Source of the DNA: Nitrospirales bacterium
GTDB lineage: Bacteria > Nitrospirota > Nitrospiria > Nitrospirales > UBA8639
DNA length: 64,000 nucleotides
Direction of reading: 5' to 3'
NCBI GenBank assembly: GCA_029261295.1
Contig: JAJDBP010000002.1
Coordinates: forward strand, 186,001 to 250,000
Shown here: piece after piece, positions 24,514 through 42,300 of the stretch
Numbering within the stretch: position 1 is the first letter of the stretch
How the letters are laid out: every line of letters starts with the position of its first letter
Notes under the pieces: generated by a model
The model's database searches: none
Told to the model about the DNA's origin: nothing
What the model saw: the letters and a program-made list of their open reading frames with translations, nothing else
Program-made: the position numbers and the translations under genes

Positions 24514-25077
24514 ATGAACGAATACCGAAATCTGCGAAGTTTGTTTGTGATGGGGTTAGCGGTCTTGGGGCTGTCATTATCTGCCTGTGGCGGAGGGGAA
24601 GGTCCACCAAAACCGCCACCGCCTGCTCCCGCTGAATACGCTGACAAACATATGCCTGACGGCTACTGGAATAACCCTGAAATACTGGAAGAGGGGAAAG
24701 CGATTTTTACTGGGGTGCAAAATATAGATGTGAATTGTGCCAGTTGCCATGGAAAGAATGGTAAACCCGTTAAGGCCGGTGCCAGGGACTTCCGTCGAAC
24801 GGAGCAAATGGAGATGTATTCTGATTCAGTTTGGTTTTGGCGTGTGAACGAAGGTGTCAAGGGAACCAAAATGAAACCCTGGAAGAGCAAGCTATCAGAA
24901 GATGAAATCTGGAAAGTCATTGCGTTTGAAGCCACATTTGGTCTCAAAGGCAAGGAATATGATGTCGCAGCCAAAAAATGGGTTGCAGCCGGCACAGCGG
25001 GATCTGCGCCAGCAGCGGAAGCGCCTGCTGATGCAGCGCCAGCAGCAGAAGCACCAGCAGGGGATGCAGCTCACTAA
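24514..25077 (+). CDS. Monohaem c-type cytochrome lipoprotein
   Basis: The 187-residue precursor has a lipobox (LSLSAC, Cys25) followed by a Gly/Pro-rich linker. One class I cytochrome c domain carries the haem motif CASCH at residues 75-79 and a likely Met ligand in GTKMKPW. The last 30 residues are an Ala/Pro repeat. It would sit on the periplasmic face, anchored by lipid, and pass electrons to or from the membrane complex. It is the first gene of an eleven-gene same-strand run that ends at 36006. Confidence 0.9.
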   Translation: MNEYRNLRSLFVMGLAVLGLSLSACGGGEGPPKPPPPAPAEYADKHMPDGYWNNPEILEEGKAIFTGVQNIDVNCASCHGKNGKPVKAGARDFRRTEQMEMYSDSVWFWRVNEGVKGTKMKPWKSKLSEDEIWKVIAFEATFGLKGKEYDVAAKKWVAAGTAGSAPAAEAPADAAPAAEAPAGDAAH

Positions 25078-25104
25078 GCAAAGCCAAAACGTAATCCTAG
25101 GAAC

Positions 25105-26820
25105 GTGAAGAAAGATAAAGGAGGGGTGCCACCCTTGAAAACCTTACACCGAAGTATTTGGATGGTCTTTGGCTTGCTCATCGGAGGGGCAGCCCTGGCG
25201 TACGGGCAAGTTCCAGATGCCCCGACGGTAAATTTTCCCTACGCGGGGAATAGGACGGCTGTCTGGGTTGTGGCGAACCTGCATATTTTGTTTGCCGCCT
25301 TTATCCTTGGCGCTCCCATTTTTGTCGTAGTGGCAGAATGGCTGGGGTATAAGAATAACGATCCGAAATACGATCGTCTTGCCAAAGAAGTCATTAAGGT
25401 CACGGTCATTCTCTATAGTATGACAGCCTTAACTGGCGGGTTGTTTCTCTTTGTGCTGCTTGGCACCTACCCGGGTTTCTCAACCTGGCTCATTCAGCAT
25501 TTCTTCCTTGTTTTTGCGGTTATTTACCCTCTCTTGTTTATTCTTGAAACAGTGATTCTCTATACGTATTTCTATTCTTGGGATTCCATGAAAGGACCTT
25601 TAAAAGGGCGTCATATTGCATTGGGAGTCCTCTTGAATATTGTCGGAACGGTCACGCTCTTTGTGATTGATGGGCCGACGTCATTTATGAATACCCCCGC
25701 GAAAGCTGCGGAAGGGGTTTCGTTGCTCGAATTTATCCAAACGGCCAGCCTCTGGGATAAAATGGCTAATTTTAGTTGGATGCCACTTAATCTTCACAGA
25801 CTTGTAGGAAATGTCACGTTTGGAGGTTTCATTGCAGGGTTGATTGCAGCTTATATGTTTATGCGATCGAAAACTGATGAAGAGCGATCCTATTATGATT
25901 GGATGGGTTTTGTGGGAAATATGATTGGAGTAGGAGCACTGCTCTTGCTTCCATTTATGGGCTACCTCCTGGCCTATGAACTTTGTGATTACGATGCCTC
26001 TATTTGTCCCTATATGATGGCCGACCAATTGTCGATGTTCTTTGAAATGCAAGGCGCAATGATCGGGCTGATCTTTTTAGCCAGTAATTACTATATTTGG
26101 CTCAGTCTCAAGCGTATTGAGGGCGTGGAGCAGATACGCATATCAGGTTTTGTGGCCGTAGCGGTGTTGGTCATGCCAGCTGTTATGGGTATGGCTTGGA
26201 AGATGTTTCCCCCACCTGAGTGGCAATCGTTGATTTACTTAGCAGCCATTGTTTTAGCTCCAATGATTCTTGGAAGGATACCTGGACTCAAAAACTTTAC
26301 AATTTCGGCCTTCACGATGATCAAAGTCGGGTTCTTAATGATTGTGGTGGCCGATGCTATTTGGATGACGCCTCATGGGTTTGTCGCCACTCAAGGGTTG
26401 GCGACCCATGACCTTGAGTTGCCAGAATGGGCCGAAGAATTGGCCCTGATGCCGGCCAAAAATGCCGCGGCCTTTACGCTGGTGTTTCTCACAATCGTCA
26501 ATTACATCATGTACAACCGGGCAATTAAACAAGGAACAATCATTTGGGGGAAAATAGATTTTGCTTCACAGTTTGTCTTAATTTTCCTCGCATTTAGCGC
26601 CATTTGGACAATGGGTTTGATGGGAACGGTTCGGTCCCTCACCAGAAAATATTTCCATGTCTATAATCTTGTTCCCGATTTTACGCCTGAAGCCTTTACG
26701 CCAACGTTGTCCTACTCGGCTTGGTGGATTACAGGGGTGACGATCGTGTTCTACGCCGTAGTCAGTTTTGCTATTCTGGTCACGCTTAAGCCGGCAAGTG
26801 TAAAGGCGGAAGCGCATTAG
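25105..26820 (+). CDS. CydA-like (cytochrome bd-like) membrane protein, copy 1
   Basis: The 571-residue protein has about a dozen or more transmembrane segments and resembles subunit I of cytochrome bd oxidase. Conserved positions can be matched: His60 in NLHILFAAFILG (CydA His19), Glu148 in FILETVILY (near CydA Glu107), His231 in NLHRLVGN (CydA His186) and Met315 or Met319 in FFEMQGAMIG (CydA Met393 region). The quinol Q-loop and the GRQPW motif of CydA are absent; WMTPHGF stands at the latter place. No CydB is encoded nearby. It therefore may not be a true quinol oxidase. GTG 25105 is nominal; TTG 25135 has the better SD (AGGAGG). Confidence 0.85.
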   Translation: MKKDKGGVPPLKTLHRSIWMVFGLLIGGAALAYGQVPDAPTVNFPYAGNRTAVWVVANLHILFAAFILGAPIFVVVAEWLGYKNNDPKYDRLAKEVIKVTVILYSMTALTGGLFLFVLLGTYPGFSTWLIQHFFLVFAVIYPLLFILETVILYTYFYSWDSMKGPLKGRHIALGVLLNIVGTVTLFVIDGPTSFMNTPAKAAEGVSLLEFIQTASLWDKMANFSWMPLNLHRLVGNVTFGGFIAGLIAAYMFMRSKTDEERSYYDWMGFVGNMIGVGALLLLPFMGYLLAYELCDYDASICPYMMADQLSMFFEMQGAMIGLIFLASNYYIWLSLKRIEGVEQIRISGFVAVAVLVMPAVMGMAWKMFPPPEWQSLIYLAAIVLAPMILGRIPGLKNFTISAFTMIKVGFLMIVVADAIWMTPHGFVATQGLATHDLELPEWAEELALMPAKNAAAFTLVFLTIVNYIMYNRAIKQGTIIWGKIDFASQFVLIFLAFSAIWTMGLMGTVRSLTRKYFHVYNLVPDFTPEAFTPTLSYSAWWITGVTIVFYAVVSFAILVTLKPASVKAEAH

Positions 26821-26876
26821 GATTTGCCTATTCAGGCTGAAGCCAAATAGAACGTATTAGGAAGAAAAGGAATCGT

Positions 26877-27683
26877 ATGGCTAATCAAAGCTTCACGAAA
26901 AATGTCCTAAAGAAAACGACCATAGGAATCATCATTGGGGTGATTTTGGTGGTGGTCGCTCAACAGACGCATTTCCCTCAAATTTTCCAGATCATGTTTT
27001 TTATCTATGCCATGTTGGGAACATTTGTGTTTATCCTTTTGGATGCTCCTCCTATGAAACGGCTAGAGGGGTTCAAGGCTCTTGGCGCTCTGCTGGTGTT
27101 TTATCTCTTACTGTCCGGAATGTATATCGCCGGTGCGTCCATCCTTCCGCAATTCGACCCTACTATCGAAGCAGGAAAAATTGAGAAAGTCCTCAAAAGG
27201 CGAAAGGCAGCATCTGAACAGGGGAAAGCCGATGAGCTTATTGCTAGGACAAAGGCCTTAGACGAACGAGCCAAAGCCATAACCCAGCAACTAAGTTCGC
27301 TTGGCGCTGGGGCGAAGGTAGAAGTGGTCGATACGCCTAGTGCTGGTGGCGCGGCTTCCGGTGACATTATTGCTCTGGGAAAAGAGCAATGGGAGCTTCA
27401 GGAATGCTACAACTGTCATAAATTATTTGGGTCAGGCGGGAAAAAACGAGGCCCAATTCTGGATAACATTGGGAACCTCATGACCCCTGAGCAATTGAGG
27501 GAGAAACTTCTCTATCCCAAGAAATGGAAAGCGGAAGGTTTCGATAAGCAATACAAAAAAGGAAAAATGCCGGATAAATACCGTGATCTGATGTTTGAAG
27601 AAGAGATCGTTGCGTTAATTGCTTTTTTGTCGACCTTGAAAGATACTTCGGTGGATACGCCAAAACCGATTAAAATGTATTAG
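26877..27683 (+). CDS. Membrane-anchored monohaem cytochrome c
   Basis: The 268-residue protein has three hydrophobic segments near the N-terminus (about residues 15-30, 35-55 and 63-85). A charged helical stretch with a coiled-coil look (about 100-140) follows, then a C-terminal cytochrome c domain with CYNCH at 177-181. GPILDNIG and MPDKYRD supply the usual second half, with Met of KMPDK a candidate axial ligand. This resembles the cytochrome c subunits that accompany bc-type complexes. It lies between the first CydA-like gene and the Rieske gene, which suggests it is a fixed subunit rather than a soluble carrier. Confidence 0.88.
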   Translation: MANQSFTKNVLKKTTIGIIIGVILVVVAQQTHFPQIFQIMFFIYAMLGTFVFILLDAPPMKRLEGFKALGALLVFYLLLSGMYIAGASILPQFDPTIEAGKIEKVLKRRKAASEQGKADELIARTKALDERAKAITQQLSSLGAGAKVEVVDTPSAGGAASGDIIALGKEQWELQECYNCHKLFGSGGKKRGPILDNIGNLMTPEQLREKLLYPKKWKAEGFDKQYKKGKMPDKYRDLMFEEEIVALIAFLSTLKDTSVDTPKPIKMY

Positions 27684-27711
27684 TGAACCTGGCAAGGATT
27701 CGTCTCTCGTT

Positions 27712-28656
27712 ATGCAACCAAAACTAACCGCCAAAGCCCTTTGTGGTGGCCAAGAAGTCGGGAAAATTTCCAAGGTGATCGTTGATCCTTTGTCGCATGA
27801 AATTAGTCATGTGGTGGTTAAGGAAAGCGGAACCCAAGGTGTTGATCGTCAGATCCCAATTGGGCAAGTTCAACAGGTCGTGAATGAGGAAGAAATTGTT
27901 CTTGGGTGCTCGCCGGATGAATTTGCTCAATATCCCCCCATTGATCGTGATCGATATGTCACGATTCATGATGTTGAAATTGCTCATTTAGAAGATAATC
28001 TTCATGTTGAACCTGGTGAAGTGTTAGTGCCTCTCCCTTGTCTAGAGCAGGGAGTTCCTCGCAGGACATTTTTTAATAATATGACCCATGCAATTGGGAC
28101 TCTCATCGCGCTTCCTTTGGCATTTCCTGTGTTGAAATTTCTCATGAAGCCTATGTATAAGCCCTTTGACAACGCCTGGTTTTCTGTAGGGAATGTGAAG
28201 AAAATAAAAAAGGAAAATATTGGCTTTCAATTTAAGTTTAATCGAGGCTTCAAGGAAGCATTCATGCCAGAACAGCAAATTGAAAAGAATATTTGGGTTG
28301 TCAATGCAACACCTGAAGTCCAAAAGGCGGTGTATGGCGGGAAAGATGCAAAGTTTTTCGATAATAAAGGCGAGTTGCTTCATGTAAATAAGGCTAATTC
28401 CCCGTACATTGGATTTTCCGGGAAGTGCCCTCACTTAGGCTGCGGGTACAAGTGGAGAAGAACAAAAAGTAATCCTGACGGAGTGTTTCTCTGTCCGTGC
28501 CATTTGAGCCTATATGATGAAGCTGGGAAAGTGATCGATGGTCCAGCCCCTCGTGGTTTGGATGTCCTGCCTATGGAAGTTAATTCCGCCGGAGAGATAA
28601 AAATTATTGATATTGAGTACAAGGCCGGCGTGAAAAATCAAATTCGCCTCCTTTAA
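27712..28656 (+). CDS. Rieske iron-sulfur protein with N-terminal PRC-barrel-like domain
   Basis: The 314-residue protein carries a Rieske [2Fe-2S] domain at about 210-300. Ligands are Cys239, His241, Cys261 and His264 (CPHLGC and CPCH), and Cys244/Cys263 form the disulfide, as in bc1/b6f proteins. Before it are a hydrophobic segment (about residues 128-148) and an N-terminal domain of about 90 residues that looks like a PRC barrel (GGQEVGKISKVIVDPLSHEISHVVV). This order is unlike the classical Rieske subunit, which begins with a short leader and helix. The next gene is cytochrome b, so this is the Rieske subunit of the same complex. Confidence 0.9.
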   Translation: MQPKLTAKALCGGQEVGKISKVIVDPLSHEISHVVVKESGTQGVDRQIPIGQVQQVVNEEEIVLGCSPDEFAQYPPIDRDRYVTIHDVEIAHLEDNLHVEPGEVLVPLPCLEQGVPRRTFFNNMTHAIGTLIALPLAFPVLKFLMKPMYKPFDNAWFSVGNVKKIKKENIGFQFKFNRGFKEAFMPEQQIEKNIWVVNATPEVQKAVYGGKDAKFFDNKGELLHVNKANSPYIGFSGKCPHLGCGYKWRRTKSNPDGVFLCPCHLSLYDEAGKVIDGPAPRGLDVLPMEVNSAGEIKIIDIEYKAGVKNQIRLL

Positions 28657-28689
28657 GCCGCAGTCATTTAATTCGAGGATTATTCCTTC

Positions 28690-29802
28690 ATGCAGCAGGA
28701 AACTGAGCCCGCTAATCAATCCAATCCATTAGAAAAGGTCGTAGAATTCGTTGATGAGCGAGTGGGCCTGAAGAATATTCAGGCCAAAATGATGAATGAG
28801 CCGATCCCTGGTGGTTCCAGATGGGCCTATGCGTTTGGGTCGGTTCTCCTCTTTATTTTCATCCTGCAAGTGGTCACTGGGATCTTGTTGATGTTTTATT
28901 ACGTCCCTAGTACCGACCACGCCTACGACAGTACTCAATACATTATTCACGAGGTTGACTACGGATGGTTTCTCCTGAGCTATCATTTTTGGGGTTCATC
29001 AGCCATGGTGGTGATGGTGTTTGCCCACATGTCGCAAGTATTCTTGTGGGGAGCCTATAAAAAGCCAAGGGAGCTCGTATGGTTAGTTGGGTTAGCTCTC
29101 TTTGGGATTGTAATGGGATTTGGGTTTACGGGGTATTTGTTGCCGTGGGATCAGCGAGCCTATTGGGCCACCGTCGTGGGTGTGGAAATCATGGACAAGA
29201 CTCCGATTGTCGGTGACTTTATGGCGAGATTTCTCAAGGGTGGACCCACTCCTGGCCAAATGACGTTGAGTCGATTTTTTGTGATTCATGTGATGGTCTT
29301 GCCAGCGGCGCTCATGGGTTTAGCGGGCCTTCACATTTTCTTATTTAGAAAAGCTGGTCCGGCTGGTCCCTTTAGGGGAACCCCAGAAGAGCTGAAGGCG
29401 AAGACTGATTATTTCTTTCCACGTCAAATATGGAAAGATATCGTCGCCATGGCTACGGTGTTTCTCATTATCTGCTCGTTGGCGTTCATTGAGCCAGTCG
29501 TCTTGTTGGACCAAGCCAAGCCTGATCCTGGTGATTATCATCCTGAGCCTGAATGGTATTTTCTCTTTCTCTTCCAGTTGCTTCGTCTTAAAATGTTTGG
29601 AGGGGAATTGGGTCAATTAATGGGGGCTATGGTACTTCCAGGAGCCTTTATGGCTTTTTTGGCGGCTCTTCCATTTATCGATACGAAGCCTGAACGCAAT
29701 CTCTTTAAGCGACCCATAGCTCTTGTTGGTTGGATTGTTATTATGGTCTTTATTTTGATCTTTACCGTTTCAGCTATTTTAAATAGAGAATTCTTACATT
29801 AG
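28690..29802 (+). CDS. Cytochrome b/b6 of the bc-type complex
   Basis: The 370-residue membrane protein has about eight helices and unites the b6-like N-terminal part with a subunit IV-like C-terminal part. Haem-b ligands are His99/His113 and His200/His215, giving 13 and 14 intervening residues. The 14-residue spacing in the second pair is a b6 trait. The quinol-site motif PEWYF is present (HPEPEWYFLFLF). The N-terminus (about 40 residues before the first helix) is acidic. Together with the Rieske and cytochrome c neighbours it forms the core of a quinol:cytochrome c oxidoreductase. Confidence 0.94.
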   Translation: MQQETEPANQSNPLEKVVEFVDERVGLKNIQAKMMNEPIPGGSRWAYAFGSVLLFIFILQVVTGILLMFYYVPSTDHAYDSTQYIIHEVDYGWFLLSYHFWGSSAMVVMVFAHMSQVFLWGAYKKPRELVWLVGLALFGIVMGFGFTGYLLPWDQRAYWATVVGVEIMDKTPIVGDFMARFLKGGPTPGQMTLSRFFVIHVMVLPAALMGLAGLHIFLFRKAGPAGPFRGTPEELKAKTDYFFPRQIWKDIVAMATVFLIICSLAFIEPVVLLDQAKPDPGDYHPEPEWYFLFLFQLLRLKMFGGELGQLMGAMVLPGAFMAFLAALPFIDTKPERNLFKRPIALVGWIVIMVFILIFTVSAILNREFLH

Positions 29803-29809
29803 AACTCCC

Positions 29810-30685
29810 ATGCCCATGTCGAATCTTAAATTAGGTCTCCTTGTTTTTTGGCCAACCTTCTGGACCGGATTCCCTATAAAAATGGTGTTCTGCCTATTGT
29901 TGTTGGCAGCTCACATGCATCCATGGGGCGGAGAAGGATTATTTTTATTGTTGCTAGTGTCCATTCCAATTGATATTTGGGCTTTAGGTCTATGCGCAAG
30001 AACAGTTTTCATCGACCGGCTGAAAGTTGATCCGGAGCCTGGTATTGGAAAAAATCTTTGGATTCGATGGGCCGTTTTTTCAGCTATTGCTCTTCCGTTG
30101 ATAAAAATGATTGTTTCAGGAACGACCGGTGCCGCGAAATCTGTGACATCCAGTATTATCCACTCGATTGAAGAATCTATCGTTGAAATTCCAGTAGCCG
30201 AACAAATCAGTATAGAGCTGGTGATGTGGGGGAGTGTGGCATCAGTAGTTCTCATCCTCTGTATCCTAGGCTGGCTGTATGGTCTAGGTTGGCTGACTCA
30301 ACCGTTTATCAAAAATGCAAAACCTCTCGATGGAACAGAAGAGGAGCGGGCAAACTTTTGGGATGGTCTTCGCGTTCCCGCCGATCAGCCGTTGTTGCTA
30401 ACGGCCTTTACTGGTACTGGGGTAGTTCTGGCCTTTGTCTTCTGGGCTTTGATACCCTCAACAACGCCTCATCCGCATGAAGAATATGAGTTTATCTCCA
30501 CGGGACAAAAAGAGGTTAAGGTTGAACCTAAAAAAGTCTTAAAGGAAGCCGAAAAGGTATTGGCGAAAGCCGAGTTGGTTGTGAAAAAACTCAAAGAAGA
30601 AAAAAGCGGTGAATCAAAAGATGCTGATGATAAAAAGCCGAAAGAACCTGCTGCCAAAGAGCCGAAGGTAGAAAAAAAGAAGTAG
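29810..30685 (+). CDS. Unknown membrane protein with Lys/Glu-rich C-terminal tail
   Basis: The 291-residue protein has about five hydrophobic segments (near residues 8-50, 83-103, 140-165 and 200-220) and no recognised redox motif. The last 75 residues are highly charged (VEPKKVLKEAEKVLAKAELVVKKLKEEK, then KPKEPAAKEPKVEKKK) and probably helical or disordered on the cytoplasmic side. It starts seven bases after cytochrome b, so the two are tightly coupled. It is probably a structural subunit of the complex. I do not recognise the family. Confidence 0.8.
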   Translation: MPMSNLKLGLLVFWPTFWTGFPIKMVFCLLLLAAHMHPWGGEGLFLLLLVSIPIDIWALGLCARTVFIDRLKVDPEPGIGKNLWIRWAVFSAIALPLIKMIVSGTTGAAKSVTSSIIHSIEESIVEIPVAEQISIELVMWGSVASVVLILCILGWLYGLGWLTQPFIKNAKPLDGTEEERANFWDGLRVPADQPLLLTAFTGTGVVLAFVFWALIPSTTPHPHEEYEFISTGQKEVKVEPKKVLKEAEKVLAKAELVVKKLKEEKSGESKDADDKKPKEPAAKEPKVEKKK

Positions 30686-30796
30686 TGATACAGAAACTAA
30701 ATTGTTTTCGAGCTAGCAAGAGGAATGCGGCATGCGTTATAAGTATGCGAAATCTTTTCCCGTGCTTAAAAATATACGAGTGAAGGGGGCCAAGTG

Positions 30797-32677
30797 ATGA
30801 AATCGGCCAACCAGATACCGCAATCAAACGTGAAAAATTTTCTGGAAAAGATGCCAACCCTCTTTAAGTGGGTAAGTTTCCTGTCCGTTCTCCTGCTTCC
30901 AGTCATTGCTATGGCGGCTGGGGCGGAAACTAAAGCGATGTCTGTTGAGTATCGTGATGTTCCAGGAATTGGTAGCCGAAACTTGGTCTGGATTGTCGCC
31001 CAGCAACATCTATTATTGGCGGGATTTGTATTGGGGGTGCCGATCTTTGGTTGGGTGTGTGAGTTGGTTGGTTGGAAAACCAAAGAAGCTCGCTATGACA
31101 AGTTAGCCAAAGAGTTTACCAAGCTTCTGACTTCAGCCTATGCCACAACAGCACTTTTTGGTGGAATACTTCTCTTCTTGCTTATTGGTTTATATCCGAA
31201 GTTGATGGCATATCTCACCGATATGTTTTTCCCTTCTTTCCTCGTCTACTGTCTCTTGTTTCTAGCGGAAACCGCAACTTTGTATATGTATTGGTATGGC
31301 TGGGATTACATGCAGGGGAATAAAAAAGCCTTTCATCTCTTTCTGGGGTTTCTCCTTAACCTCTTTGCCATTGGTATCATGATCGTTCCAAATTCCTGGG
31401 CCACATTCCAGGCAAGTCCTGTAGTCGTGGGAGATGGTGATGCATGGACGAGAGCGTGGATGGCGATGCAGAACCCGACATGGTGGCCAGTCAATATTCA
31501 TCGACTCATTGCCAATGTGGTATTGGGTGGGTTTATTGTTGGCGCTTATGCCGGAATCAGATATCTTTTGGCGGTATCCCGTGAAGAGCGGGAACATTAC
31601 GATTGGATGGGCTATGTAGGGAACTTTATTGGGGTGTTTGGTATGTTGCCGCTCCCCTTCGCCGGCTATTGGTTGATGCGGGAAGTCTATCAGTACAACC
31701 AGCAGATGGGTATTACCCTGATGGGTGGATTCCTTGCCTGGTTGTTTATTCTCCAAGCGATGCTTATTGGTGTGCTCTTTCTTGGAGCCAATTATTATTT
31801 TTGGATGGGTATTACTTATAGGATACCTGGGTCCGAAAACTCCTATAAAAAACCGATTATGGCGATGTTGGTCGTCTTATTATTATGTCTGGGCGTGTGG
31901 ATGACTCCTCATACATTGGTGGCGAGCTTAGCGGAAGCCCAAAAAATGGGAGGAACCCATCATCCATTGCTAGGAGTGTTCGGCGTCATGTCGGCCAAAA
32001 TGACGGTGGCCAATATCATGATCCTCGTGACGTTTATGAGTTTTATTATGTATTGGCGCGCGGGGAAACAAGAAACGGCTGGGTGGGCAAAAGCGGCAAA
32101 AGCTATTATGAATGGATTGTTGGCTATTGCTGCTGTTGCGGTGATTGTTCTAGGCGTATGGGGTTATTTTGTGCCGGCCATTATCCGGATTAATTATTTC
32201 TCTGTGGCCCAAGTCCTCATAGTAGGTTTTATCATGGTGACCTTTACGCCTTTGACCGCCTTGTTGTTGAAAAGTGCTAAGACGACAACAGAAATGGTAT
32301 GGGGGAAAATGCCCATACGAGCCGGATATTGTTTGGTGCTGAATGCCGTGATGGTAATTCTGCTGATGTCTCTCATGGGTTATGCGCGATCCTCTTCACG
32401 AGTCCATTGGCATATTTATGGAGTGATGCGAGATACGTCGGAATATGCATTTTCCCCCGCACTTGGCTATGCGGCTGCTTTTATGTCGTTGAATACTTTT
32501 GTGTATTGTTTGTTGGTGGCGTTTATCTTTTGGGTCGCCACGTTGGGAGATAAGGCCAAAGCTCAACAAGCTAAGGCTTCAATGTCAGACGTTCCTGGTG
32601 GTACTCCGGCCATGGCTGGCGGGGCACCAAGTTCTGGCGAGAAATTGGAATCTGGGATCCTCGAAAACCACAAGTGA
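30797..32677 (+). CDS. CydA-like (cytochrome bd-like) membrane protein, copy 2
   Basis: The 626-residue protein is a paralogue of the product of 25105-26820, and the two share landmarks in order. They are His71 in QQHLLLAGFVLG, Glu158 in LAETATLYMYWYGWD, His235 in NIHRLIANVVLGGF, Met322 in LQAMLIGVLFLGANYYFW and WMTPH in place of GRQPW. It has a longer N-terminus with a signal-like helix (about residues 18-36) and a Met/Gly/Ala-rich tail. No CydB is present here either. GTG 30794 immediately precedes ATG 30797. A gap of 108 bases before it is the largest in the operon and could hold an internal promoter. Confidence 0.85.
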   Translation: MKSANQIPQSNVKNFLEKMPTLFKWVSFLSVLLLPVIAMAAGAETKAMSVEYRDVPGIGSRNLVWIVAQQHLLLAGFVLGVPIFGWVCELVGWKTKEARYDKLAKEFTKLLTSAYATTALFGGILLFLLIGLYPKLMAYLTDMFFPSFLVYCLLFLAETATLYMYWYGWDYMQGNKKAFHLFLGFLLNLFAIGIMIVPNSWATFQASPVVVGDGDAWTRAWMAMQNPTWWPVNIHRLIANVVLGGFIVGAYAGIRYLLAVSREEREHYDWMGYVGNFIGVFGMLPLPFAGYWLMREVYQYNQQMGITLMGGFLAWLFILQAMLIGVLFLGANYYFWMGITYRIPGSENSYKKPIMAMLVVLLLCLGVWMTPHTLVASLAEAQKMGGTHHPLLGVFGVMSAKMTVANIMILVTFMSFIMYWRAGKQETAGWAKAAKAIMNGLLAIAAVAVIVLGVWGYFVPAIIRINYFSVAQVLIVGFIMVTFTPLTALLLKSAKTTTEMVWGKMPIRAGYCLVLNAVMVILLMSLMGYARSSSRVHWHIYGVMRDTSEYAFSPALGYAAAFMSLNTFVYCLLVAFIFWVATLGDKAKAQQAKASMSDVPGGTPAMAGGAPSSGEKLESGILENHK

Positions 32678-32683
32678 GGCATC

Positions 32684-33331
32684 ATGAGTGAAGTTGCGTT
32701 ACTCCAAATAATTGGTCTGTGCGTTGTTGGAACTGGGATTCTCATTCTGTTGTTTGTCAAGGGGATGTTTCTCAGGGTCGTCGGTTTTGTGGCCATGGTT
32801 TTGGGGTCTTTTAGCCTGATAGCTTTGGGTGTTCCGCAAGTGGCCTCTTTGCCTCCAGCTATCGAAAAATTTGATCTTGCAAAGGTGAAAAGTCCTGCTG
32901 ATTTAGCGGCCATAGGGCAAAAAATATTTTTTAGTAAAGGACAATGTGCGTTGTGTCACTCTATCGGACCGAGCCACTCAGCGCGATGCCCTGATTTGGC
33001 CGGGATTGGAGCTAAGTTGGCTCCAGAGTTTATCTATGAGAGCCTCACCCAACCGCAAGCGTACATTTATTTAGATTTCCGTCATGCTACGAAGCCTGAG
33101 GAATATCCTGCGCGTATGCCCCATATCGATAAAGATCCTATTGGACTTACGAAGCCAGAAATTTTTTCCGTGATTGCCTTTCTTCAAAAGATGAGTGGAG
33201 AGCCTATTAGTATAAAGGTTGAAGATGTGATGGATTCGCAGGAAGACCAGACTGAAGCGGTAGAAGTTGCTTTAAAGACCAATTCTGTTTCTACGAGTTC
33301 TGTGCTAGTAGAAAGTGACGTGGCTCCATAA
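32684..33331 (+). CDS. Membrane-anchored monohaem cytochrome c
   Basis: The 215-residue protein has two N-terminal hydrophobic segments (about residues 5-25 and 28-50). A cytochrome c domain with CALCH at 88-92 follows, with a candidate Met ligand in ARMPHID. An unusual second Cys (ARCPDLAG) follows the haem motif. The C-terminus after residue 175 is acidic and Ser/Thr/Val-rich. It starts six bases after the second CydA-like gene, which suggests a dedicated electron partner of that subunit, as the 26877 cytochrome may be for the first. Confidence 0.88.
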   Translation: MSEVALLQIIGLCVVGTGILILLFVKGMFLRVVGFVAMVLGSFSLIALGVPQVASLPPAIEKFDLAKVKSPADLAAIGQKIFFSKGQCALCHSIGPSHSARCPDLAGIGAKLAPEFIYESLTQPQAYIYLDFRHATKPEEYPARMPHIDKDPIGLTKPEIFSVIAFLQKMSGEPISIKVEDVMDSQEDQTEAVEVALKTNSVSTSSVLVESDVAP

Positions 33332-33361
33332 GATGGAACATCGGAAAACTGGAGGAATGAG

Positions 33362-34087
33362 ATGAGAGGTCCAATCACGAGTGGTGCAATTCTTCTCGCA
33401 GGGGTGTTTGTGTTTTTGAAATTCATTCTTCCCTTATTTACGGCCCCTCTTCCAGCAAGTTTAATTTATCTCTATATGACCCTAGCTTTTAGCGGAATCA
33501 TGCTCTATGGAACGATGAGTGCGTCCTCGCTGGAGTCTCTCATGGGTCCTGTTTTTCGATTCTTATCGGGGGAGGGCCAGTCGGGAACTGGAAAATTGGC
33601 ACGGCTCGCGGTCTTGGTATTATTTCCCTTATTAGTCGGGTGGCAAACCTATACGAGTTTAGCTCCTAGCGATCTTCCTCCTGGAGAAAACCGGACGATT
33701 CATCCTGCTCCACCGGGGGAGTTTGTCGGGTTGGCTAATCCCTATCAGAATAACGAAGCGAATATTAATATGGGGAAAGGGCTGTATGCGGCCTACTGCT
33801 CCCCTTGTCATGGCGCAAACTATGATGGAAAAGGCCCAGCAGCAAAAGGCTTTAATCCTCCGCCTGCGAACTTTGCTGATCCTGGCACTATCGCTCAACT
33901 ACAAGAATCATATCTTTTTTGGAGGATAAAAAAAGGCGGGGTAGGTTTGCCAGTAGAAGCTATGCCGTGGAAATCCGCGATGCCTCGCTGGGAAGTCGAA
34001 TTACCGGATGAGTTTATTTGGAAAATTATTATGGGGGAGTATGATGGTGCTCATCAATCTCCTCGGACTTGGGAAGAAGACGATTAA
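33362..34087 (+). CDS. Membrane-anchored monohaem cytochrome c
   Basis: The 241-residue protein has three N-terminal hydrophobic segments (about residues 5-25, 28-45 and 76-95). The C-terminal cytochrome c domain carries CSPCH at 146-150, and a candidate Met ligand lies in EAMPWKSAMPRW. The domain resembles that of the lipoprotein cytochrome at 24514 (both have FWR(I/V)...G followed by a Met-Pro-Trp type motif), so the two may be related by duplication. It is 30 bases after the preceding cytochrome gene. Confidence 0.87.
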   Translation: MRGPITSGAILLAGVFVFLKFILPLFTAPLPASLIYLYMTLAFSGIMLYGTMSASSLESLMGPVFRFLSGEGQSGTGKLARLAVLVLFPLLVGWQTYTSLAPSDLPPGENRTIHPAPPGEFVGLANPYQNNEANINMGKGLYAAYCSPCHGANYDGKGPAAKGFNPPPANFADPGTIAQLQESYLFWRIKKGGVGLPVEAMPWKSAMPRWEVELPDEFIWKIIMGEYDGAHQSPRTWEEDD

Positions 34088-34135
34088 GGGGCCTGATCCA
34101 TTACTTGAGAACGGTGTCTTTGTGGAGAATATGAC

Positions 34136-34975
34136 ATGCTGAACAAACTGAGATTCCTTTCAACAGTTACCCTTGTAGGAATATCTGGAATACTCGGTTC
34201 TACTGCGGGGTTTGCCAGTGATCCTCCACCTGCGGAGGAAGTTGGTGCAAGTGTGTCAATCAGAATGTATCAAGTAGAGGGCACTCTTCCTGCTGATGAC
34301 CCAAACTCTCCCCAATGGGCCGCGGTTCCAGAATCCGAATTTAACTTAGCTCCACAAGTACATTGGCCTGAGCGTATTCAGGAAGTGACAGTTCAATCGG
34401 TGAAAGTCAAGGGATTGCATGATGGGCAAAATCTTGCAATTTTGGTTGAATATGAAGATCCCACCGATGACCCCAAAGATGCGGCGGCTATAGAATTCAT
34501 GGTGGGTGACAAAAAGGCACATTTTGCTCATGGTCAACCTATGCTCCAAGTGGAGGGCGGACCTGTCAATATTTGGTTTTGGAAAAAGGAAACCGGTAAA
34601 GCGCTAGATATGAGTGCTAAGGGTTTTAAGACCTTGAGCACTCAAGAAAAACAAGATGTCAGTGCAACAGGCGCTTGGGCCGGTGGTTCTTGGAAAGTCG
34701 TGTTTACGCGGGCTCTTAAAACGGAGGATGAACAAGACGTCCAAATTGAACCGGGGGAATGGAGGAGTGTGGCTTTTGCGTTTTGGGACGGGGCCCTGGT
34801 TAGCGGAGTGGCGAAGGAAAAGGGTAGTCAAAAAGCGGTGTCTTCTTGGTGGTCTATCCGTGCTGAACCAAGTGCCGATAATTCCATATTCGGATGGGTT
34901 ATCTTTGGGCTAGCTCTAGCAGCTGGCTTTGAACTTGTTGTGGTGCGGAAGTTGAGAAAGGGCCAATCAGCATGA
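34136..34975 (+). CDS. NXR-gamma/ethylbenzene-dehydrogenase-gamma-like haem-b protein
   Basis: The 279-residue precursor has a signal peptide (cut likely after GFA, about residue 27). A beta-rich domain of the type II DMSO-reductase gamma family follows (VRMYQVEGTLPADDP...W, VTVQSVKVKGLHDGQNLAILVEYEDPT, then WKVVFTRALKTEDE), which binds one haem b through Met and Lys in characterised members. A single C-terminal helix (about 255-275) anchors it in the membrane with a short basic tail. In nitrite oxidisers such proteins connect nitrite oxidoreductase to cytochrome c. It overlaps the next gene by four bases (ATGA), so the two are translationally coupled. The exact axial residues cannot be fixed by eye. 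Confidence 0.82.
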   Translation: MLNKLRFLSTVTLVGISGILGSTAGFASDPPPAEEVGASVSIRMYQVEGTLPADDPNSPQWAAVPESEFNLAPQVHWPERIQEVTVQSVKVKGLHDGQNLAILVEYEDPTDDPKDAAAIEFMVGDKKAHFAHGQPMLQVEGGPVNIWFWKKETGKALDMSAKGFKTLSTQEKQDVSATGAWAGGSWKVVFTRALKTEDEQDVQIEPGEWRSVAFAFWDGALVSGVAKEKGSQKAVSSWWSIRAEPSADNSIFGWVIFGLALAAGFELVVVRKLRKGQSA

Positions 34976-36006
34976 AACCGGTGGCCAAGGGAAATATCAC
35001 AGGAGCCTTTCTGAAGTTTTTAACCCTGGGGCTCATAGCTGGATTACTCATGTATGGGTGTGCGGGGGATGAAAAAACGGCTAAAGGCAAAAAACTCTAT
35101 CACCATTATTGTAGCCATTGTCATGGAGATTCTGGACAGCAAGGTGAGGGGTTTAATTGGGACCGTATGCCAGACCCACGGCCCAAAAATTTAGCATCCA
35201 ACGCAGAAATGTCAACGTTCAGTGACCAAGAAATATTCGATACGGTCTATCGAGATATGCGAGATTGGGAAGATCCAAAAGTGTTGGATGACGAGAACTA
35301 TTTTGCAGTCCCCACAATGCCAACGTTTAAATATACGCTTTCTGAGGAAGAAATTTGGGGCATTGTGGCCCATGTACGAACTCTTCATGGTATGTCGTTG
35401 ACCTTCGATCTAGTTGGACGCAAAAAAGAATTAGAAGAGGCTTACCAAACGGCAAAACCAGAAATGGAAGCGGCCGAAGCTGCTTATAATGCTGCTGTTG
35501 AAAAAGTCGAAGCAGCTCAAGAAGCGTATGAAGAAACATTGACGGATGAGCAACTTGAGGATTATGAGCCAGAAGAAATCACGCTTCCAGAAGAGGCGGT
35601 ATTTCTCACAGCTAACGACAAATTCAATAAATCCAAAAATGCTTTTGAATACTTTTCCAAGCGTCCTAAAAAGACACGGATTGAACGTCCGGATCTCACT
35701 ATTTCCGAAGCTGATTTAGCTCAGCAGGTTGAGCTGGGGAAAAAGCTATACACTGGTACCTATGGCTGTAATGGGTGTCATAGTATCAATGACGTCGGTG
35801 GGTTGGTTGGTCCAACATTAGATCGCGCTGGTTTTCGGTTGAATCCAACATGGATTTATCGTTGGATCCGTAATCCTCAGGCGATGAAGAAGAAGACGCG
35901 AATGCCTAACTTAGGCGCTTCTGATGCAGACGCCAGAGCCTTAACCTATTATCTAGGAACCCTTCGCGCACCGAAGCCAGAAGGGCCTGTTCCAGACCCA
36001 GAGTAA
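34972..36006 (+). CDS. Dihaem cytochrome c lipoprotein with a coiled-coil spacer
   Basis: The 344-residue precursor has a hydrophobic leader ending near Cys30 (LMYGC), so it is probably a lipoprotein. Two cytochrome c domains follow, with CSHCH at 47-51 and CNGCH at 266-270. Between them is a charged heptad-like segment of about 75 residues (about 145-215, rich in Glu, Ala and Lys). It may act as a rigid arm separating the two haems. The second domain has the bc-complex-type sequence GPTLDRAG and the ligand candidate TRMPNLG. It overlaps the haem-b gene and is the last gene of the respiratory run. Confidence 0.87.
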   Translation: MKPVAKGNITGAFLKFLTLGLIAGLLMYGCAGDEKTAKGKKLYHHYCSHCHGDSGQQGEGFNWDRMPDPRPKNLASNAEMSTFSDQEIFDTVYRDMRDWEDPKVLDDENYFAVPTMPTFKYTLSEEEIWGIVAHVRTLHGMSLTFDLVGRKKELEEAYQTAKPEMEAAEAAYNAAVEKVEAAQEAYEETLTDEQLEDYEPEEITLPEEAVFLTANDKFNKSKNAFEYFSKRPKKTRIERPDLTISEADLAQQVELGKKLYTGTYGCNGCHSINDVGGLVGPTLDRAGFRLNPTWIYRWIRNPQAMKKKTRMPNLGASDADARALTYYLGTLRAPKPEGPVPDPE

Positions 36007-36344: not shown

Positions 36345-39300
36345 ATGTCTTTTTCTTCCTGGATGGCCACTTCGGTAGCGGGTCATCGTAATCGATTTGC
36401 TCGTCGAAGAGACCAAGCCCACAAACGTCGAGCAGCCAAAACAGAGGGTTCTCGCCCCTGGTTGTACCAGCTAGAATCTCTAGAGCCACGTATACTTCTC
36501 TCTGCAGATCCACTGGTAGTGGAATCACCAGAAGGGGCCGTTCTGGTCCATGAAGTTTCGGAAGTGGTCAGTCTTACGCCCCCTCAGGATGAAGGACAGG
36601 GTGTACCTTCTCAAAACGACATTTCCAATGGTACGGATAGTGCCCAAGGTCTAACATCCGAAGAAATTACGACTCCCTTAACTCTTGAACCGATAGCTCC
36701 ATTCGAAGCCTTGATTGAAGGCATCCAAGTTCAGTCGGACTTTGCCGCCTCCTCAGAGACCGATACCTATAGTGCAGCGTTTGATGTCTTCAATAAAGCC
36801 ACGGTGATCTTCAAGCCGTTGGATCCTTCGATTCAGGCGACGATAACTCTCAATGATTTCGCTGGGACACCCATCCAATCTCAGACGGCTTCTTTTGCTG
36901 GTCAAAGTCTCTCCATTCGTTCCGTTCCCATCAATTTTTCAGGAGCGCCGGCATTGATCGATGTGACGTCTCTTGCCGGTGCTGGTGCCTATGAACTGAT
37001 CATCCTTTCGGATGCGACCGCAGAAATTGAATCAGTCAGCGGGACGAGTAATGACACGATCGCCACCGCACAGGACTTGAGTGAATCTCTGTTATTTGGG
37101 TCCGATCTTCAGCTATTTGGAAACCGTGTGGCCGTTCGAGGTGAAGCAGGGCCCGAAGGGGATTATTTTCTCTTGCCGAACTTTGGAGGGTTTTTCCTTT
37201 CCAGTATCGCCCTAGAAGGAATCAATGGCGGGAATGTGTCATTCGAAGTGCGTGATGCGAATGACAACCTCATTGCCCTAGGTGGTGATGGAGCGACGAG
37301 TGCGGATTCTTTCATTCAACAGCTACGTGCTACTCCTACCGACGACCTCTATATTCGGGTGCTGGGACAAGGGAGCGATGAATATATCCTGACAGCCACG
37401 AAGTCGGTGCAACTGGGCCTCGAGCCAGAGGCCATTAATGGAGTCCGACAACAATTAACAACTTTTTCAACGGGCACCTTGGGCTCACTGGGGATTGGAG
37501 AAGAAGGGGGTGGGGTAGGAAGCGGCTTTGATGAACCAAATGACACCATCTTTGAAGCCGTAGGCACCAATGTTCTCGAGACTGGCACCTATTCAGATTC
37601 TGGGGCAATCGGAGACAACTTCAATTTATCGGGTAATACCAGCCTCGATGTCGATTTCTTCGAAATTGGATTTTTGAACATTGGCGATATCGTAACCATC
37701 AATGTCGATGATGCGGGATTGCCATTTGGTTCAAGCATTATCTTGTTTAATTCATTTGGCGATTCCATAGATTTCTCCGATACCTTCCTTGAATTTGAGG
37801 TATTTGATCAGTTTGAGGAGGACACCTATTATGTCGGAGTGAGTGCTTGTGGGGAATTTGATTGCAATGAATTTTATGATCCCTTCAGCGAGGGAAGCGG
37901 GGATGATTTGTCCTATGGGGAGGGTACTTACGATATTCTCATCGAGGTCAATGGAGGAGCAGGAGGGGCAGGGGCTCTCACGTCCGAAGCTGTTCTGGAT
38001 AATTTTGATGTGTACGGGTTGACCATTTTTGATGGGGATACGATAACAATCGATGCCCAAACTGTGGATGGAAGTATTGATCCCCGCTTGATTTTGATCG
38101 ATCCAATTACTGGATTCACTCTGGCTATGGACGATAACAGTGGAGGTGGTACGAGCGCCCGAATCGTCCATACCATCACGACGGGAACCCAAGAGTATCA
38201 AATCCTAGTCGATTCGATTACCCCGGTACCCGGACACTATGTTCTGACCGCATCGTCAAGTGGTGGGAATGTTGTTAAAGCAACTGAGATTGTGAGTGAC
38301 AATGTGAGTGGTCAGACCTTCGGGTCGTTTCCACGGTCTGTTCTCGTTGAGTTTACTACTTCCCTAAAGGTCGATACGGTTCAAGCCACCGATTTGACGG
38401 TCAATGGCATGGCTGCCACAGCTGTCCGGTTTATCGATGGCAATACGTTGGCTTTTGATCTGGATGTTTCAGCATTCAATATCGGCGATGGAACCTACAC
38501 AGTCAATCTGCCGTCTGGCTCGTTTAAGGGCACGAATGACCTCAATGTTTCCGATAGCATCAATTCCACCTTTACCTTTACCTCCGTCGATCCTCCCGAA
38601 GTCATCGCCAGTACGGTGGAGACGGGCGACGTAATTTTACCAGGCGATCTCACCTACACAGCCACCTTTAGTGAACCAATCTTTTCGGCGGTTGATGTGG
38701 GTATTTTTACTGTCATTATCCTGAATGAAAATGATGCGACCCTGGTGAACACTCTCACTGGAAAGCCCTATGAAGCTTCGAACGTGCTGTTCGGATTTGA
38801 TAAAATTCCCAATCCCGATCCTAATATCTCGAATTTTTCTACTGATTTTTTGACCCTTGAATATGATGACTTGCCTGAGGGCGCCTATGAACTTCGTTTG
38901 ATTAATTTCCCTGCGGGGGGATTGGGGAACGACGGACTTTTCGATGTGAATGGGAATCGCCTGGACGGTTCGCCAAGCTTTCCTTTGCCCTCGGGTGATG
39001 GGGCGTATGGCGATGATTTTGTCGTCAATTTTTTCGTGGACGGACCTGGCGTCACTCCGATTATCTTAGAGGATCGTGACCCTCTCGGGTCGTTCGTGGC
39101 TGATCCCCCAATCTTGGGTGCTTTCCATGCTGCTGGTGACATCGATACCTTTTCGATCGATCTGGACCAGGGCCAACTCGCCACATTCGTGCTCACACCT
39201 GTGGAATTCAATCAACGAGGAAGAGTGACGATTACGGATCCTTTTGGTGGAACGTTTGTCGATGAGACTGCGGTGGCCGGTGGCAAACCCATCGTGATTC

Positions 39301-42300
39301 AAGCCGAGCCTACCCTCTTTGGAGGGACCTACACGATTGATTTGAGTTCGCTTGAGGGTTCTGGAGCCTACCTGTTCGAAGTGATTCTCAACGCCGCCCT
39401 CGAGGAGGAAATTCACACTCCTGTCTCGAACGATACCTCGATCACCGCGGAAGATACCCTCACTGGTGTGCTTCCACTCAACAATGGAGCCGATCGGACG
39501 GCGATCGTCGGACGAGTGGGTGCTGGAACCCATACAGAATCCATCACAGTCAATGGGGCCTTTGAGGGTGAGAAAGAAGCTCAGTTTAATTTTGATCCGG
39601 GGCCAGGGGCTAATGGGTTTGTTGGTTTGACGATCACAGCCTTCGGGGATCTCAATGGTTCCGATGAATCTCTCACGGTCAGCTTCGATGGGCCTACTCC
39701 AGATATCACGTTGTTTGAGGGGGTTGGGTTTGGAAACCCGACGCCTTCGGTGGCACAAATATTCCTGACGCCGACAGCTTGGGAGGCGCTTTCTTTAGAA
39801 GGAACCGCCACAATCACGACCCGCGCGAGTGGAGAGTTTACTGATTTTGTCAGTGGGAACTTTATCACCATTGAAGTGAGTTACGATGTCAACGACCCTG
39901 CCGACTATTATCGTCTTTCGCTGAATGCCGGAGAAGCCGCCTCGATCCTGCTTGGAACCGTTCGAAAATCCGACAATGTGACAATTGAACTTGAAGATAA
40001 TTTGGGCAATATTCTGGCTATCGGCCATGATGGGTTTCTGAACGCGCATCATGCGATTAGTGATTTTATTGCACCCACGACCGGGGATTATTTCGTCAAA
40101 GTCTCCGGTTCTGGTCGCTACAATCTGGTCACCACGCGAGAAGCATCTTTTGATTTTGAGCCTAACGATCAAGTAGGTGTGGCGCAAGACCTTTCCCAAA
40201 CCTTTCAAGTGCTGGGTAATTTGACGAATCCTCCAGCCACTGGAGCGGGAAGCCACCCGATTCGTGTGGCGGAAATTGATTCCAATCCTCCTGGTTCCGG
40301 TGATCCCCATCTTTTGATCAATCAGCTCAACAATGACACCTTCTTTGACTTCGATGCCGTACGCGTCACGATCGATCAAGTGGATACCTTGGATGAACTC
40401 TTGGCGTTCGATGTCGTGGTGCTGGGTTCACAGGGGGATTTGAGAGATCCGGTGTTTTCCAGTGTGTTGCGAGCGTATGTAGAAGGTGGGGGCGGTCTCG
40501 TGGCTTCGGCCTTCATTCTTGATGTGATAGGTGGCGTGGCACCGATTGTTGATTTGGATGACGTGATTCCGATTGATACCTCTGCGACAAAAACTTTGGT
40601 CAGTAATGGGACGATTGAAATTCAAGATGATACCCATCCTGTGACGGCAGGGATCACCGACTTTTTCATTGGATTTATGGAATCATCTTTAGGCGGTGCC
40701 GATCCTGGTGCGACAGTCCTGGGGACTTCACAGGGGCATCCGACGGTGGTCGTGCAGGAATTGGGTGCGCAGGGACGTAGTGTCTATTTAGGACCACACT
40801 ACACGAGTAATAGCGTGGTAACGCTTCGTTCCGGGCTGGCGGATCAACTCTTGGAGCAAGCGGTGGCCTGGGCCGGTGGCGCAGGAGATCGTTTCGATGT
40901 ATTTGAAATCCAGGTGAATGAGGGAGATCAGCTTAACATTGCCACCACCACGCCTTTTGATGATGTCGGGCAAATTGAGAATGTGTTGGATCCGACTCTT
41001 GAGCTCTATGACCCAAATGGCTTTTTGGTTGTCCTGGATGAAAATGGCGCTCCTGATGCGAAGAATGCGGTCATCTCTTATATTGTTCCAGGAGGAGCCG
41101 GTGGCACGTATTCAGTCCTAGTTCGGGCTGAGAACTTTGGGGGGGGCACCTATACACTCACCGTTGACGGAGCGACCGGGACTTCAGACGTTGTTCCTGT
41201 TGTCGAAGGCACCTCCCCAAGTGAAGGGCAGAAGCTGGCGCTTCCGCCTACCCATATCGACCTGGTGCTTTCGGAAGGCCTTTTGGTCTCGACGGTCGAG
41301 GCCTCGGATTTGACGATTGATGGGGGAGCAACCGTCGATAGCGTTCAACTCCTTGATGGGCGAACCGCAAGGTTTTTTCTCACGGTTCCCGATATCGATT
41401 TTATCTTTACGTATACCCTGGCTGATGGCGCGTTTGATGATTTGCAGGGTAATGCCAGCGCTCCCTTTGCTGGAACATTTGAGGTGGATAAAACCGGCCC
41501 TCGGGTGATTGCTCAGCTTCCCGCCCTTCAGGCCTCAGCGCCTTTTTCTGCCATCACGGTCGTCTTCGATGAAGACGTCCTTGCTGCGACCTTTACGACT
41601 GATGACATCGTCAGTTTCACCGGGCCGGGAGCGGTGGATCTCTTAAATGACATTACCGGAGTCTCCGGTTCCGGTGATACTTATACCGTGACATTCAATC
41701 AACAAGTAGCTTTAGGACAATATTCGTTGATCCTGGGACCAAATATCGAAGATGTGGTTGGACTTTTGATGGATCAGGATCAAAATGGTGTGCAAGGCGA
41801 AGGCACGGATACCTATACCGCGGTGGTTGAGATTCAAACTCCAGATCTCACAGTTGAATCAGTGGTTATTCAAGAGGCCTCGGCCGAGTTTGGAAACACG
41901 ATAACTGTGGATTACACGATTCGCAATATTGGGACTGATCCTGCGTTGGAGAACTGGTCGGATCGGATCTGGTTATCCAGTGATACTGTCCTTGGGGGAG
42001 ATACGCTACTTCTGACGGTCGATGCCGAGGCGGAAAGCCCCTTGGCCGCCGGAGCAGCGTATTCGAATACGATACAGGTCACACTTCCACTGAACGACAC
42101 TCTTTTTGCTGGCACGTTCAATATTCTCGTGCAAACTGATGCCTTCAATAGTCAGCTTGAAAGTAGTGAAGGCAATAATGTGGCGAGTGACACGATTGAT
42201 CTCACCGTGCCTCCCCTTCCGGATTTGATCGTGAGCCTGGTGAGTCCCCCGGCGGTGGGGAATTCGGGGCAGGATATTCCCTTGACCTGGACCATTATGA

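What the first reader, a model, noticed from the sequence alone, without database searches (positions are those of the whole stretch)
24514..36006. Eleven-gene respiratory cluster combining a bc-type core, two CydA-like proteins and an NXR-gamma-like protein
Seen: eleven same-strand genes with gaps of 6-108 bases or a 4-base overlap. They encode five c-type cytochromes (six CxxCH motifs), Rieske and b6-type cytochrome b, two CydA-like paralogues without CydB, a Lys-rich membrane protein and a haem-b gamma-like protein. Known: nitrite oxidisers must move electrons uphill from cytochrome c to quinone, and Nitrospira-like genomes carry bd-like proteins of uncertain role. Inference: this may be one composite quinone/cytochrome c oxidoreductase in which the CydA-like parts are structural or redox subunits, not oxidases.
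Basis: partly seen in the sequence, partly recalled or inferred. Interest (0 to 1): 0.85.

Follow-up and report, generated by a model that had tools for sequence, protein, structure and literature searches.

The report
Nitrospira linked bc–oxidase gene cluster
The eleven genes are the known, universally conserved respiratory cluster of Nitrospira-type nitrifying bacteria, most likely a quinone/cytochrome c complex linked to an unusual oxygen-reducing enzyme that replaces the usual oxidases; it is real and important but largely described already, although two relatives carry an apparently undescribed version with built-in ion-pump subunits.

Summary
All eleven genes lie on the plus strand at 24514-36006, and the whole genome has no CydB and no haem-copper oxidase. 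The cluster is the ortholog of the Nitrospira moscoviensis cluster published as CIII_1 + bd-like_1 + bd-like_2 + alt_NxrC_1 + cytochromes c (PMC6606698), for which a III/IV supercomplex was already proposed. Gene order is invariant: both CydA-like genes occur in 99 of 99 Nitrospirales genomes, 92 of them 3.8-4.3 kb apart on one contig.

'Not oxidases' is disfavoured. This genome and 46 of the other 146 Nitrospirales genomes searched have no other recognisable terminal oxidase. The second CydA-like protein keeps invariant haem ligands plus a three-His set; neither protein has a quinol site. This fits the published OR-N type cytochrome c:O2 reductase.

Two results go beyond the literature I could read. 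The cluster, gamma-like subunit included, occurs in four Nitrospiria genomes without nitrite oxidoreductase (NXR). In two genomes, one a Nitrospira, the bd-like_2/cytochrome c pair is replaced in place by a fused CydA-cytochrome c plus two MrpD-type pump subunits. Mechanism and physical assembly remain inferred; both AlphaFold models were poor.

The parts
24514..25077 (+). g1: monohaem cytochrome c, probable lipoprotein (LSAC lipobox, C25 conserved)
   Evidence: PF13442 1.5e-9; C25 at least 95% conserved in 88 sequences
25105..26820 (+). g2: CydA-like protein, = bd-like_1 of N. moscoviensis
   Evidence: PF01654 5.9e-18; H60, H231, M449, M506, H518 invariant in 122 sequences, no Q-loop Lys/Glu
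26877..27683 (+). g3: membrane-anchored monohaem cytochrome c
   Evidence: PF00034 6.8e-9
27712..28656 (+). g4: Rieske [2Fe-2S] protein with a weak N-terminal PRC-barrel match
   Evidence: PF00355 2.7e-7, PF05239 0.005; CxHxGC...CxCH conserved in 112 sequences
28690..29802 (+). g5: full-length cytochrome b, b6-type His spacing, PEWY motif, no haem c_n cysteine
   Evidence: H99/H113/H200/H215 and E-W-Y invariant in 107 sequences, V/A/I/T at the b6 Cys35 position
29810..30685 (+). g6: membrane protein; conserved core is one TM helix plus Lys-rich coil
   Evidence: no family match; 91-126 aa core version at the same place in f7/f8 genomes
30794..32677 (+). g7: CydA-like protein, = bd-like_2, proposed O2-reducing subunit
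   Evidence: PF01654 7.8e-18; H72, H236, H373, H389, H390, M399, M528, H540 100% invariant in 100 sequences
32684..33331 (+). g8: monohaem cytochrome c, fused to g7 in the MrpD variants
   Evidence: PF00034 2.5e-6
33362..34087 (+). g9: membrane-anchored monohaem cytochrome c
   Evidence: PF13442 2e-7
34136..34975 (+). g10: NXR-gamma-like haem-b protein with C-terminal TM helix, = alt_NxrC_1
   Evidence: EB_dh 7e-21; 7b04_C 4.7e-15; TIGR03477 99.9 bits, below its cut-off
34972..36006 (+). g11: dihaem cytochrome c, probable lipoprotein
   Evidence: two PF13442 stretches; C30 at least 95% conserved

Best explanation
The cluster encodes the core of the Nitrospirales respiratory chain: a bc-type complex III (g4 Rieske, g5 cytochrome b, g6 accessory) linked with a CydA-like cytochrome c:O2 reductase (complex IV replacement), plus the cytochromes c that wire them. 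g7 with its paired cytochrome g8 is most likely the O2-reducing unit. g2 is most likely its CydA' partner. g1, g3, g9 and g11 carry electrons. g10, a haem-b gamma-like protein anchored in the membrane, is most likely a periplasmic electron-entry subunit of the module that is not tied to NXR. Working mode, inferred: electrons from nitrite arrive at cytochrome c through NXR. Most go downhill to O2 through g7/g2. A fraction go uphill through g5/g4 to quinone, driven by proton motive force; the same complex III runs forward when H2, formate or glycogen is the donor. Shown here: gene content, conservation, ligands, lack of other oxidases, independence from NXR. Inferred: O2 reduction, direction of flow, physical supercomplex.
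For: No COX1 and no CydB in a 100%-complete genome that has a true NxrA; the same in 46 of the other 146 Nitrospirales genomes and in the NXR-less G157 and G265. Both CydA-like proteins keep the counterparts of E. coli H19, H186 and E107 and lack K252/E257 of the quinol site. g7 alone has invariant H373/H389/H390; in g2 H424 varies and there is no HH pair. Complex III residues (four haem His, PEWY, Rieske Cys/His) are invariant. Order is conserved. In G167 and G265 the g7-g8 pair is swapped as one unit for a fused CydA-cytochrome c plus two MrpD while the rest of the cluster stays: g7+g8 are one functional unit working in the same setting. The whole cluster occurs in four genomes with no NxrA. 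Literature: PMC6606698, PMC12342949, PMC10839748, PMC12324825.
Against: No biochemical evidence of O2 reduction by any OR-N enzyme was found; the literature held calls it putative. E. coli E445 (b595 ligand) and E99 are not conserved. Other CydA-like paralogues (bd-like_3/4) exist in the same genome and could share the oxidase role. Related bd-like proteins are reported in anaerobic anammox bacteria (PMC6606698, PMC3578206), where an oxidase role is doubtful. Both AF2 models were too poor (mean pLDDT 52.7 and 54.7) to test the haem geometry.
Confidence: 0.7

Rival explanations
1. One reading: one composite quinone/cytochrome c oxidoreductase in which both CydA-like proteins are structural or redox subunits and do not reduce O2.
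For: Invariant 11-gene order; loss of E445 and E99 counterparts; in G054, G049, G203 and G012 the g2 clade sits beside molybdopterin oxidoreductase genes without bc genes, so g2 may be a general redox/membrane module; PMC3578206 proposed an ACIII-like role for a related bd-like protein.
Against: It leaves this genome, 46 other Nitrospirales genomes, and the NXR-less G157 and G265, without any recognisable terminal oxidase, apart from their other CydA-like paralogues. Active-site His retained in all orthologs.
Confidence: 0.1
2. Electron-bifurcating respiratory complex: electrons from cytochrome c are split inside one complex between O2 (through g7/g2) and quinone (through g5/g4), so O2 reduction directly drives quinone reduction; the MrpD versions add or dissipate ion motive force.
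For: In-place swap of g7-g8 for a fused CydA-cytochrome c plus two MrpD pump subunits inside an otherwise standard cluster; the idea was published for the related TO_2 of Manganitrophaceae (PMC9040806).
Against: No structural or kinetic evidence; proton-motive-force-driven reverse flow through complex III explains the gene set without it; the window's own cluster has no MrpD.
Confidence: 0.1
3. NXR docking station: the cluster is a III/IV supercomplex with g10 as the specific docking and anchor subunit for NXR (proposal of PMC6606698).
For: g10 is homologous to NxrC; in G111 an NxrA/NxrB/gamma set is encoded next to g7-g8-g9 homologs.
Against: G157, G265, G233 and G163 (two families, 96-99% complete) keep the cluster with g10 but give no NxrA match at all; in this genome the full-length nxrA is elsewhere (C13).
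Confidence: 0.1
4. Co-regulated but physically separate complex III and oxidase; no supercomplex.
For: Gene linkage alone proves neither contact nor stoichiometry; no structure could be modelled.
Against: Strict gene order with interleaved bc, CydA-like and cytochrome genes for the whole order and beyond, and replacement of the oxidase module strictly in place.
Confidence: 0.3

Closest known systems
N. moscoviensis CIII_1 / bd-like_1 / bd-like_2 / alt_NxrC_1 cluster (Mundinger et al. 2019, PMC6606698)
   Same: Same genes; the paper states that two cytochrome c genes lie between bd-like_2 and alt_nxrC_1, as g8 and g9 lie between g7 and g10. The N. moscoviensis contig region was recovered by g2 (L159).
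   Different: Only a different host lineage (g2 identity 72%) and a diverged g6.
OR-N type CydAA' cytochrome bd superfamily O2 reductase (Murali et al. 2021, as cited in PMC12342949 and PMC10839748)
   Same: Two CydA paralogues, no CydB, no quinol-binding residues, cytochromes c next door.
   Different: Clade placement as OR-N1/OR-N2 could not be tested here (reference sequences not held).
TO_1/TO_2 complexes of Ca. Manganitrophaceae (PMC9040806)
   Same: CydA-like oxidase candidate with a periplasmic haem-b protein; TO_2-like loci with two MrpD were found in f6/f9 genomes.
   Different: The window has no MrpD and has the bc genes between the two CydA-like genes.
Canonical cytochrome bd (CydAB)
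   Same: N-terminal CydA helices, H19/H186/E107 counterparts.
   Different: No CydB, no Q-loop residues, no E445/E99, extended C-terminal half.
Actinobacterial/mitochondrial III-IV supercomplexes
   Same: Complex III linked to a cytochrome c oxidase.
   Different: The oxidase is CydA-like, not haem-copper; physical association here is not shown.

Membership tests
OR-N CydAA' cytochrome c:O2 reductase | CydA homology in two paralogous subunits, no CydB | tested here: met
OR-N CydAA' cytochrome c:O2 reductase | quinol-binding residues absent | tested here: met
   E. coli K252/E257 replaced by M/L and L in nearly all orthologs
OR-N CydAA' cytochrome c:O2 reductase | active-site and low-spin haem His retained | tested here: met
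   H60/H231 in g2 and H72/H236 in g7, 100%
OR-N CydAA' cytochrome c:O2 reductase | falls in the OR-N1 and OR-N2 clades of the published tree | not tested
   reference tree and sequences not held; own tree shows two separate clades
OR-N CydAA' cytochrome c:O2 reductase | cytochrome c oxidation coupled to O2 reduction | not testable with these tools
   needs biochemistry
Canonical cytochrome bd quinol oxidase | CydB subunit and Q-loop quinol site | tested here: not met
   no CydB in the genome; Q-loop residues missing
Haem-copper oxidase | COX1 domain | tested here: not met
Cytochrome bc/b6f complex III | cytochrome b with four haem His and PEWY; Rieske ligands | tested here: met
Cytochrome b6f (sensu stricto) | Cys for covalent haem c_n | tested here: not met
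   V/A/I/T at that column in 107 sequences
Cytochrome bc/b6f complex III | dedicated cytochrome c1 or f subunit | tested here: inconclusive
   five cytochromes c present, none identifiable as c1 or f
NXR gamma subunit (NxrC) | homology to type II DMSO reductase haem-b subunit | tested here: met
   (TIGR03477 below its cut-off)
NXR gamma subunit (NxrC) | tied to NXR (linked to nxrAB, or absent where NXR is absent) | tested here: not met
   full-length nxrA is on another contig; cluster with g10 in four NxrA-less genomes
TO_2-type (MrpD-containing) complex | two MrpD-like subunits | tested here: not met
   none among the eleven genes; present in G167 and G265

The most novel reading that the evidence does not exclude
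The cluster makes one physical, modular respiratory complex that splits electrons from periplasmic cytochrome c between O2 (CydA-like pair) and quinone (bc core), with the haem-b gamma-like protein as a donor-neutral entry port and an exchangeable ion-pump module (MrpD pair) in some members, so that uphill quinone reduction is powered inside the complex.
Probability: 0.08. Interest if true: 0.88.

Novelty: already known. Interest (0 to 1): 0.42.

Why it matters
Nitrospirales are major nitrite oxidisers, and their terminal oxidase has apparently never been characterised biochemically. This cluster is present in every member examined and is the only recognisable oxidase-containing module in many of them, so it likely carries much of the oxygen use coupled to nitrification. 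That it persists without NXR and can exchange its oxidase module for one with MrpD pumps gives concrete natural variants for testing how such chains conserve energy and push electrons uphill to quinone.

Tried and rejected
AlphaFold2 of g7 and g2 with 41-row alignments gave mean pLDDT 52.7 and 54.7, so no fold search or haem-geometry claim was made. Profile comparison with E. coli CydA aligned only the N-terminal part (139 and 228 columns), so residue mapping of the C-terminal half rests on MAFFT and is less certain. Lücker 2010 and Murali 2021 are not held, so the OR-N clade assignment is taken second-hand. Promoter/terminator scans gave no more sites than shuffles, so operon boundaries are not settled. 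Considered and rejected: canonical bd oxidase (no CydB, no Q-loop) and haem-copper oxidase (no COX1). The E. coli haem-ligand numbers are from my own knowledge; the haem-b axial ligands of EbdC could not be mapped on g10 with certainty and were not used as a test.

Full report
OBSERVATION. The eleven genes are present exactly as described: gaps 27, 56, 28, 33, 7, 108, 6, 30, 48 and a 4-base overlap; five c-type cytochromes with six CxxCH motifs. I call them g1 to g11. Family searches give cytochromes c (g1, g3, g8, g9, g11), Rieske (g4), cytochrome b (g5), two CydA-like proteins (g2, g7), an unnamed Lys-rich membrane protein (g6) and an EB_dh/NXR-gamma-like protein (g10). The window lies in a 4.06 Mb genome rated 100% complete. 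Its closest named relatives by g2 are unnamed Nitrospirales MAGs (up to 98%), while N. moscoviensis g2 is 72% identical, so the host is a Nitrospirales bacterium; it belongs to a family (f1) other than f2, which appears to be that of N. moscoviensis (the f2 label is my inference). It has a true NxrA (1,567 bits to Kuenenia NXR-A) on another contig.

IDENTITY WITH A PUBLISHED CLUSTER. Mundinger et al. 2019 (PMC6606698) describe in N. [quoted passage not shown] They state that two cytochrome c genes lie between bd-like_2 and alt_nxrC_1. This is g7-g8-g9-g10, so g7 = bd-like_2, g2 = bd-like_1, g4/g5 = CIII_1 and g10 = alt_NxrC_1. They already proposed a III/IV supercomplex that may bind NXR. Later papers class the CydA-like pair as an OR-N type CydAA', a putative cytochrome c:O2 reductase (PMC12342949, PMC10839748, PMC12324825).

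CONSERVATION. g2 and g7 occur in 99 of 99 Nitrospirales genomes sampled; in 92 they share a contig, 3.8-4.3 kb apart, and in the other 7 they are on different contigs of fragmented assemblies. Of 37 loci read in full, 34 show g1-g11 in order and 3 are cut by contig ends. Of 80 named loci, 51 hold all eleven in order; the rest are truncated (one, L170, carries the variant described below), and no rearrangement was seen. Four genomes outside the order but in the same class (G157 of f7; G265, G233, G163 of f8) carry the same cluster, with g6 reduced to a 91-126 aa core (one helix plus Lys-rich coil); in G265 the g7-g8 part is the variant form.

ARE THE CydA-LIKE PROTEINS OXIDASES? The genome has no COX1 and no CydB. 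Of 147 Nitrospirales genomes, 47 (this one included) show neither at any score, or 64 if only strong COX1 matches count. G157 and G265 also lack both. If these organisms respire oxygen, as Nitrospira does, a CydA-like protein must do it. Mapping onto E. coli CydA: H19, H186 and E107 counterparts are kept in both g2 and g7; the quinol residues K252 and E257 are lost in both; E99 is lost; E445 is replaced by Leu beside an invariant Met. g7 (100 sequences) has fully invariant H373, H389 and H390, fitting the published note of possible copper ligands in bd-like_2; in g2 (122 sequences) the H373 counterpart (H424) varies and the HH pair is absent. So g7 is the likelier catalytic subunit and g2 its partner; this step is inference. 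G185 and G241 have the g7 clade but no g2 clade in the searches (fragmented MAGs), and G054, G049, G203 and G012 have the g2 clade next to molybdopterin oxidoreductase genes, so the two are separable in evolution.

INDEPENDENCE FROM NXR. A NxrA query finds nothing in G157, G265, G233 and G163 (96-99% complete), nor does the broader type II DMSO reductase model give more than weak matches, yet they hold g10 and the rest of the cluster. nxr genes do drop out of MAGs, as G060 shows with only contig-end fragments, but these four have not even fragments. g10 is thus better read as an electron-entry subunit of the respiratory module than as a specific NXR anchor. Conversely, in G111 an NxrA-NxrB-gamma set lies beside g7-g8-g9 homologs, so such gamma-like proteins and CydA-like modules do associate with NXR-type enzymes elsewhere.

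A MODULE SWAP. In G167 (a Nitrospirales genome; same contig as record SPAW01000080.1, Nitrospira sp. isolate RCA) and in G265, the cluster is standard except that g7-g8 is replaced by a fused CydA-like/cytochrome c protein (790 and 805 aa) followed by two MrpD-type antiporter subunits (489/526 and 493/535 aa; PF00361 about 1e-52 and 1e-45 in G265). In a tree the fused g7 of G167 and G265 group together (99/97) within a clade (100/99) of the MrpD-linked proteins of f6/f9 genomes, apart from all other Nitrospirales g7. PMC9040806 describes such an MrpD-containing complex (TO_2) as restricted to Manganitrophaceae; two searches of the held papers found no report of it in Nitrospira (the one paper with mrpD in a Nitrospira concerns a stand-alone Mrp antiporter). 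The swap shows that g7+g8 form one exchangeable unit within the module and that an ion-pumping version is compatible with the same bc core, g2 and g10. Both are MAGs, so long reads should confirm.

MECHANISM. Best supported: complex III plus a CydA-like cytochrome c oxidase with shared cytochromes; downhill flow to O2, uphill flow to quinone through complex III driven by proton motive force. Complex III is competent by sequence: four haem His, PEWY and Rieske ligands are invariant; no haem c_n Cys. Whether one supercomplex forms is unproven.

VERDICT. Real, deeply conserved and biologically central, but already described in orthologous form; the 'not oxidases' inference is disfavoured. The NXR-independence and the MrpD swap are the parts that appear new.

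Noticed in passing
L193:9515-18924 (G167; same contig as L170, SPAW01000080.1) and L083:8724-17912 (G265): In an otherwise standard cluster the g7-g8 pair is replaced by a fused CydA-like/cytochrome c protein and two MrpD-type antiporter subunits; phylogeny groups these with the TO_2-like proteins of f6/f9 genomes, suggesting transfer and in-place replacement.
   Followed up: partly
L083:9242-9574 (G265): An ATP synthase subunit c-like gene (PF00137 5.6e-14) lies between the g6 core and the fused g7, beside a small membrane ORF.
   Followed up: no
L093:847-10623 (G111, f28): NxrA-like (43% over full length), FeS subunit, gamma-like protein and another small gene are encoded next to g7-g8-g9 homologs in a Nitrospirota genome outside the class.
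   Followed up: partly
L086, L095, L087, L088: Single CydA-like proteins of the g2 clade lie beside molybdopterin oxidoreductase genes of varied families (DMSO type II-like in G203, Phs/Fdh-like in the others) without bc genes.
   Followed up: partly
G000 C9:473001-492500 (L007) and C15:1-11298 (L009): bd-like_3 and bd-like_4 type genes occur twice, near the end of C9 and on the whole of the 11.3 kb contig C15; second copy or strain-variant contig.
   Followed up: no
window 36345-52196: A 5,283-aa ORF directly downstream, G+C about 0.49-0.51 against 0.44-0.47 around it, with CarboxypepD_reg, SdrD_B and DUF7619 repeats near its C-terminus: a giant surface or secreted protein candidate.
   Followed up: no
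G000 C2:2-157 and C13:93587-97021: One full nxrA plus a 100%-identical 52-codon end fragment at a contig start, so a second nxrA copy probably collapsed in assembly.
   Followed up: no
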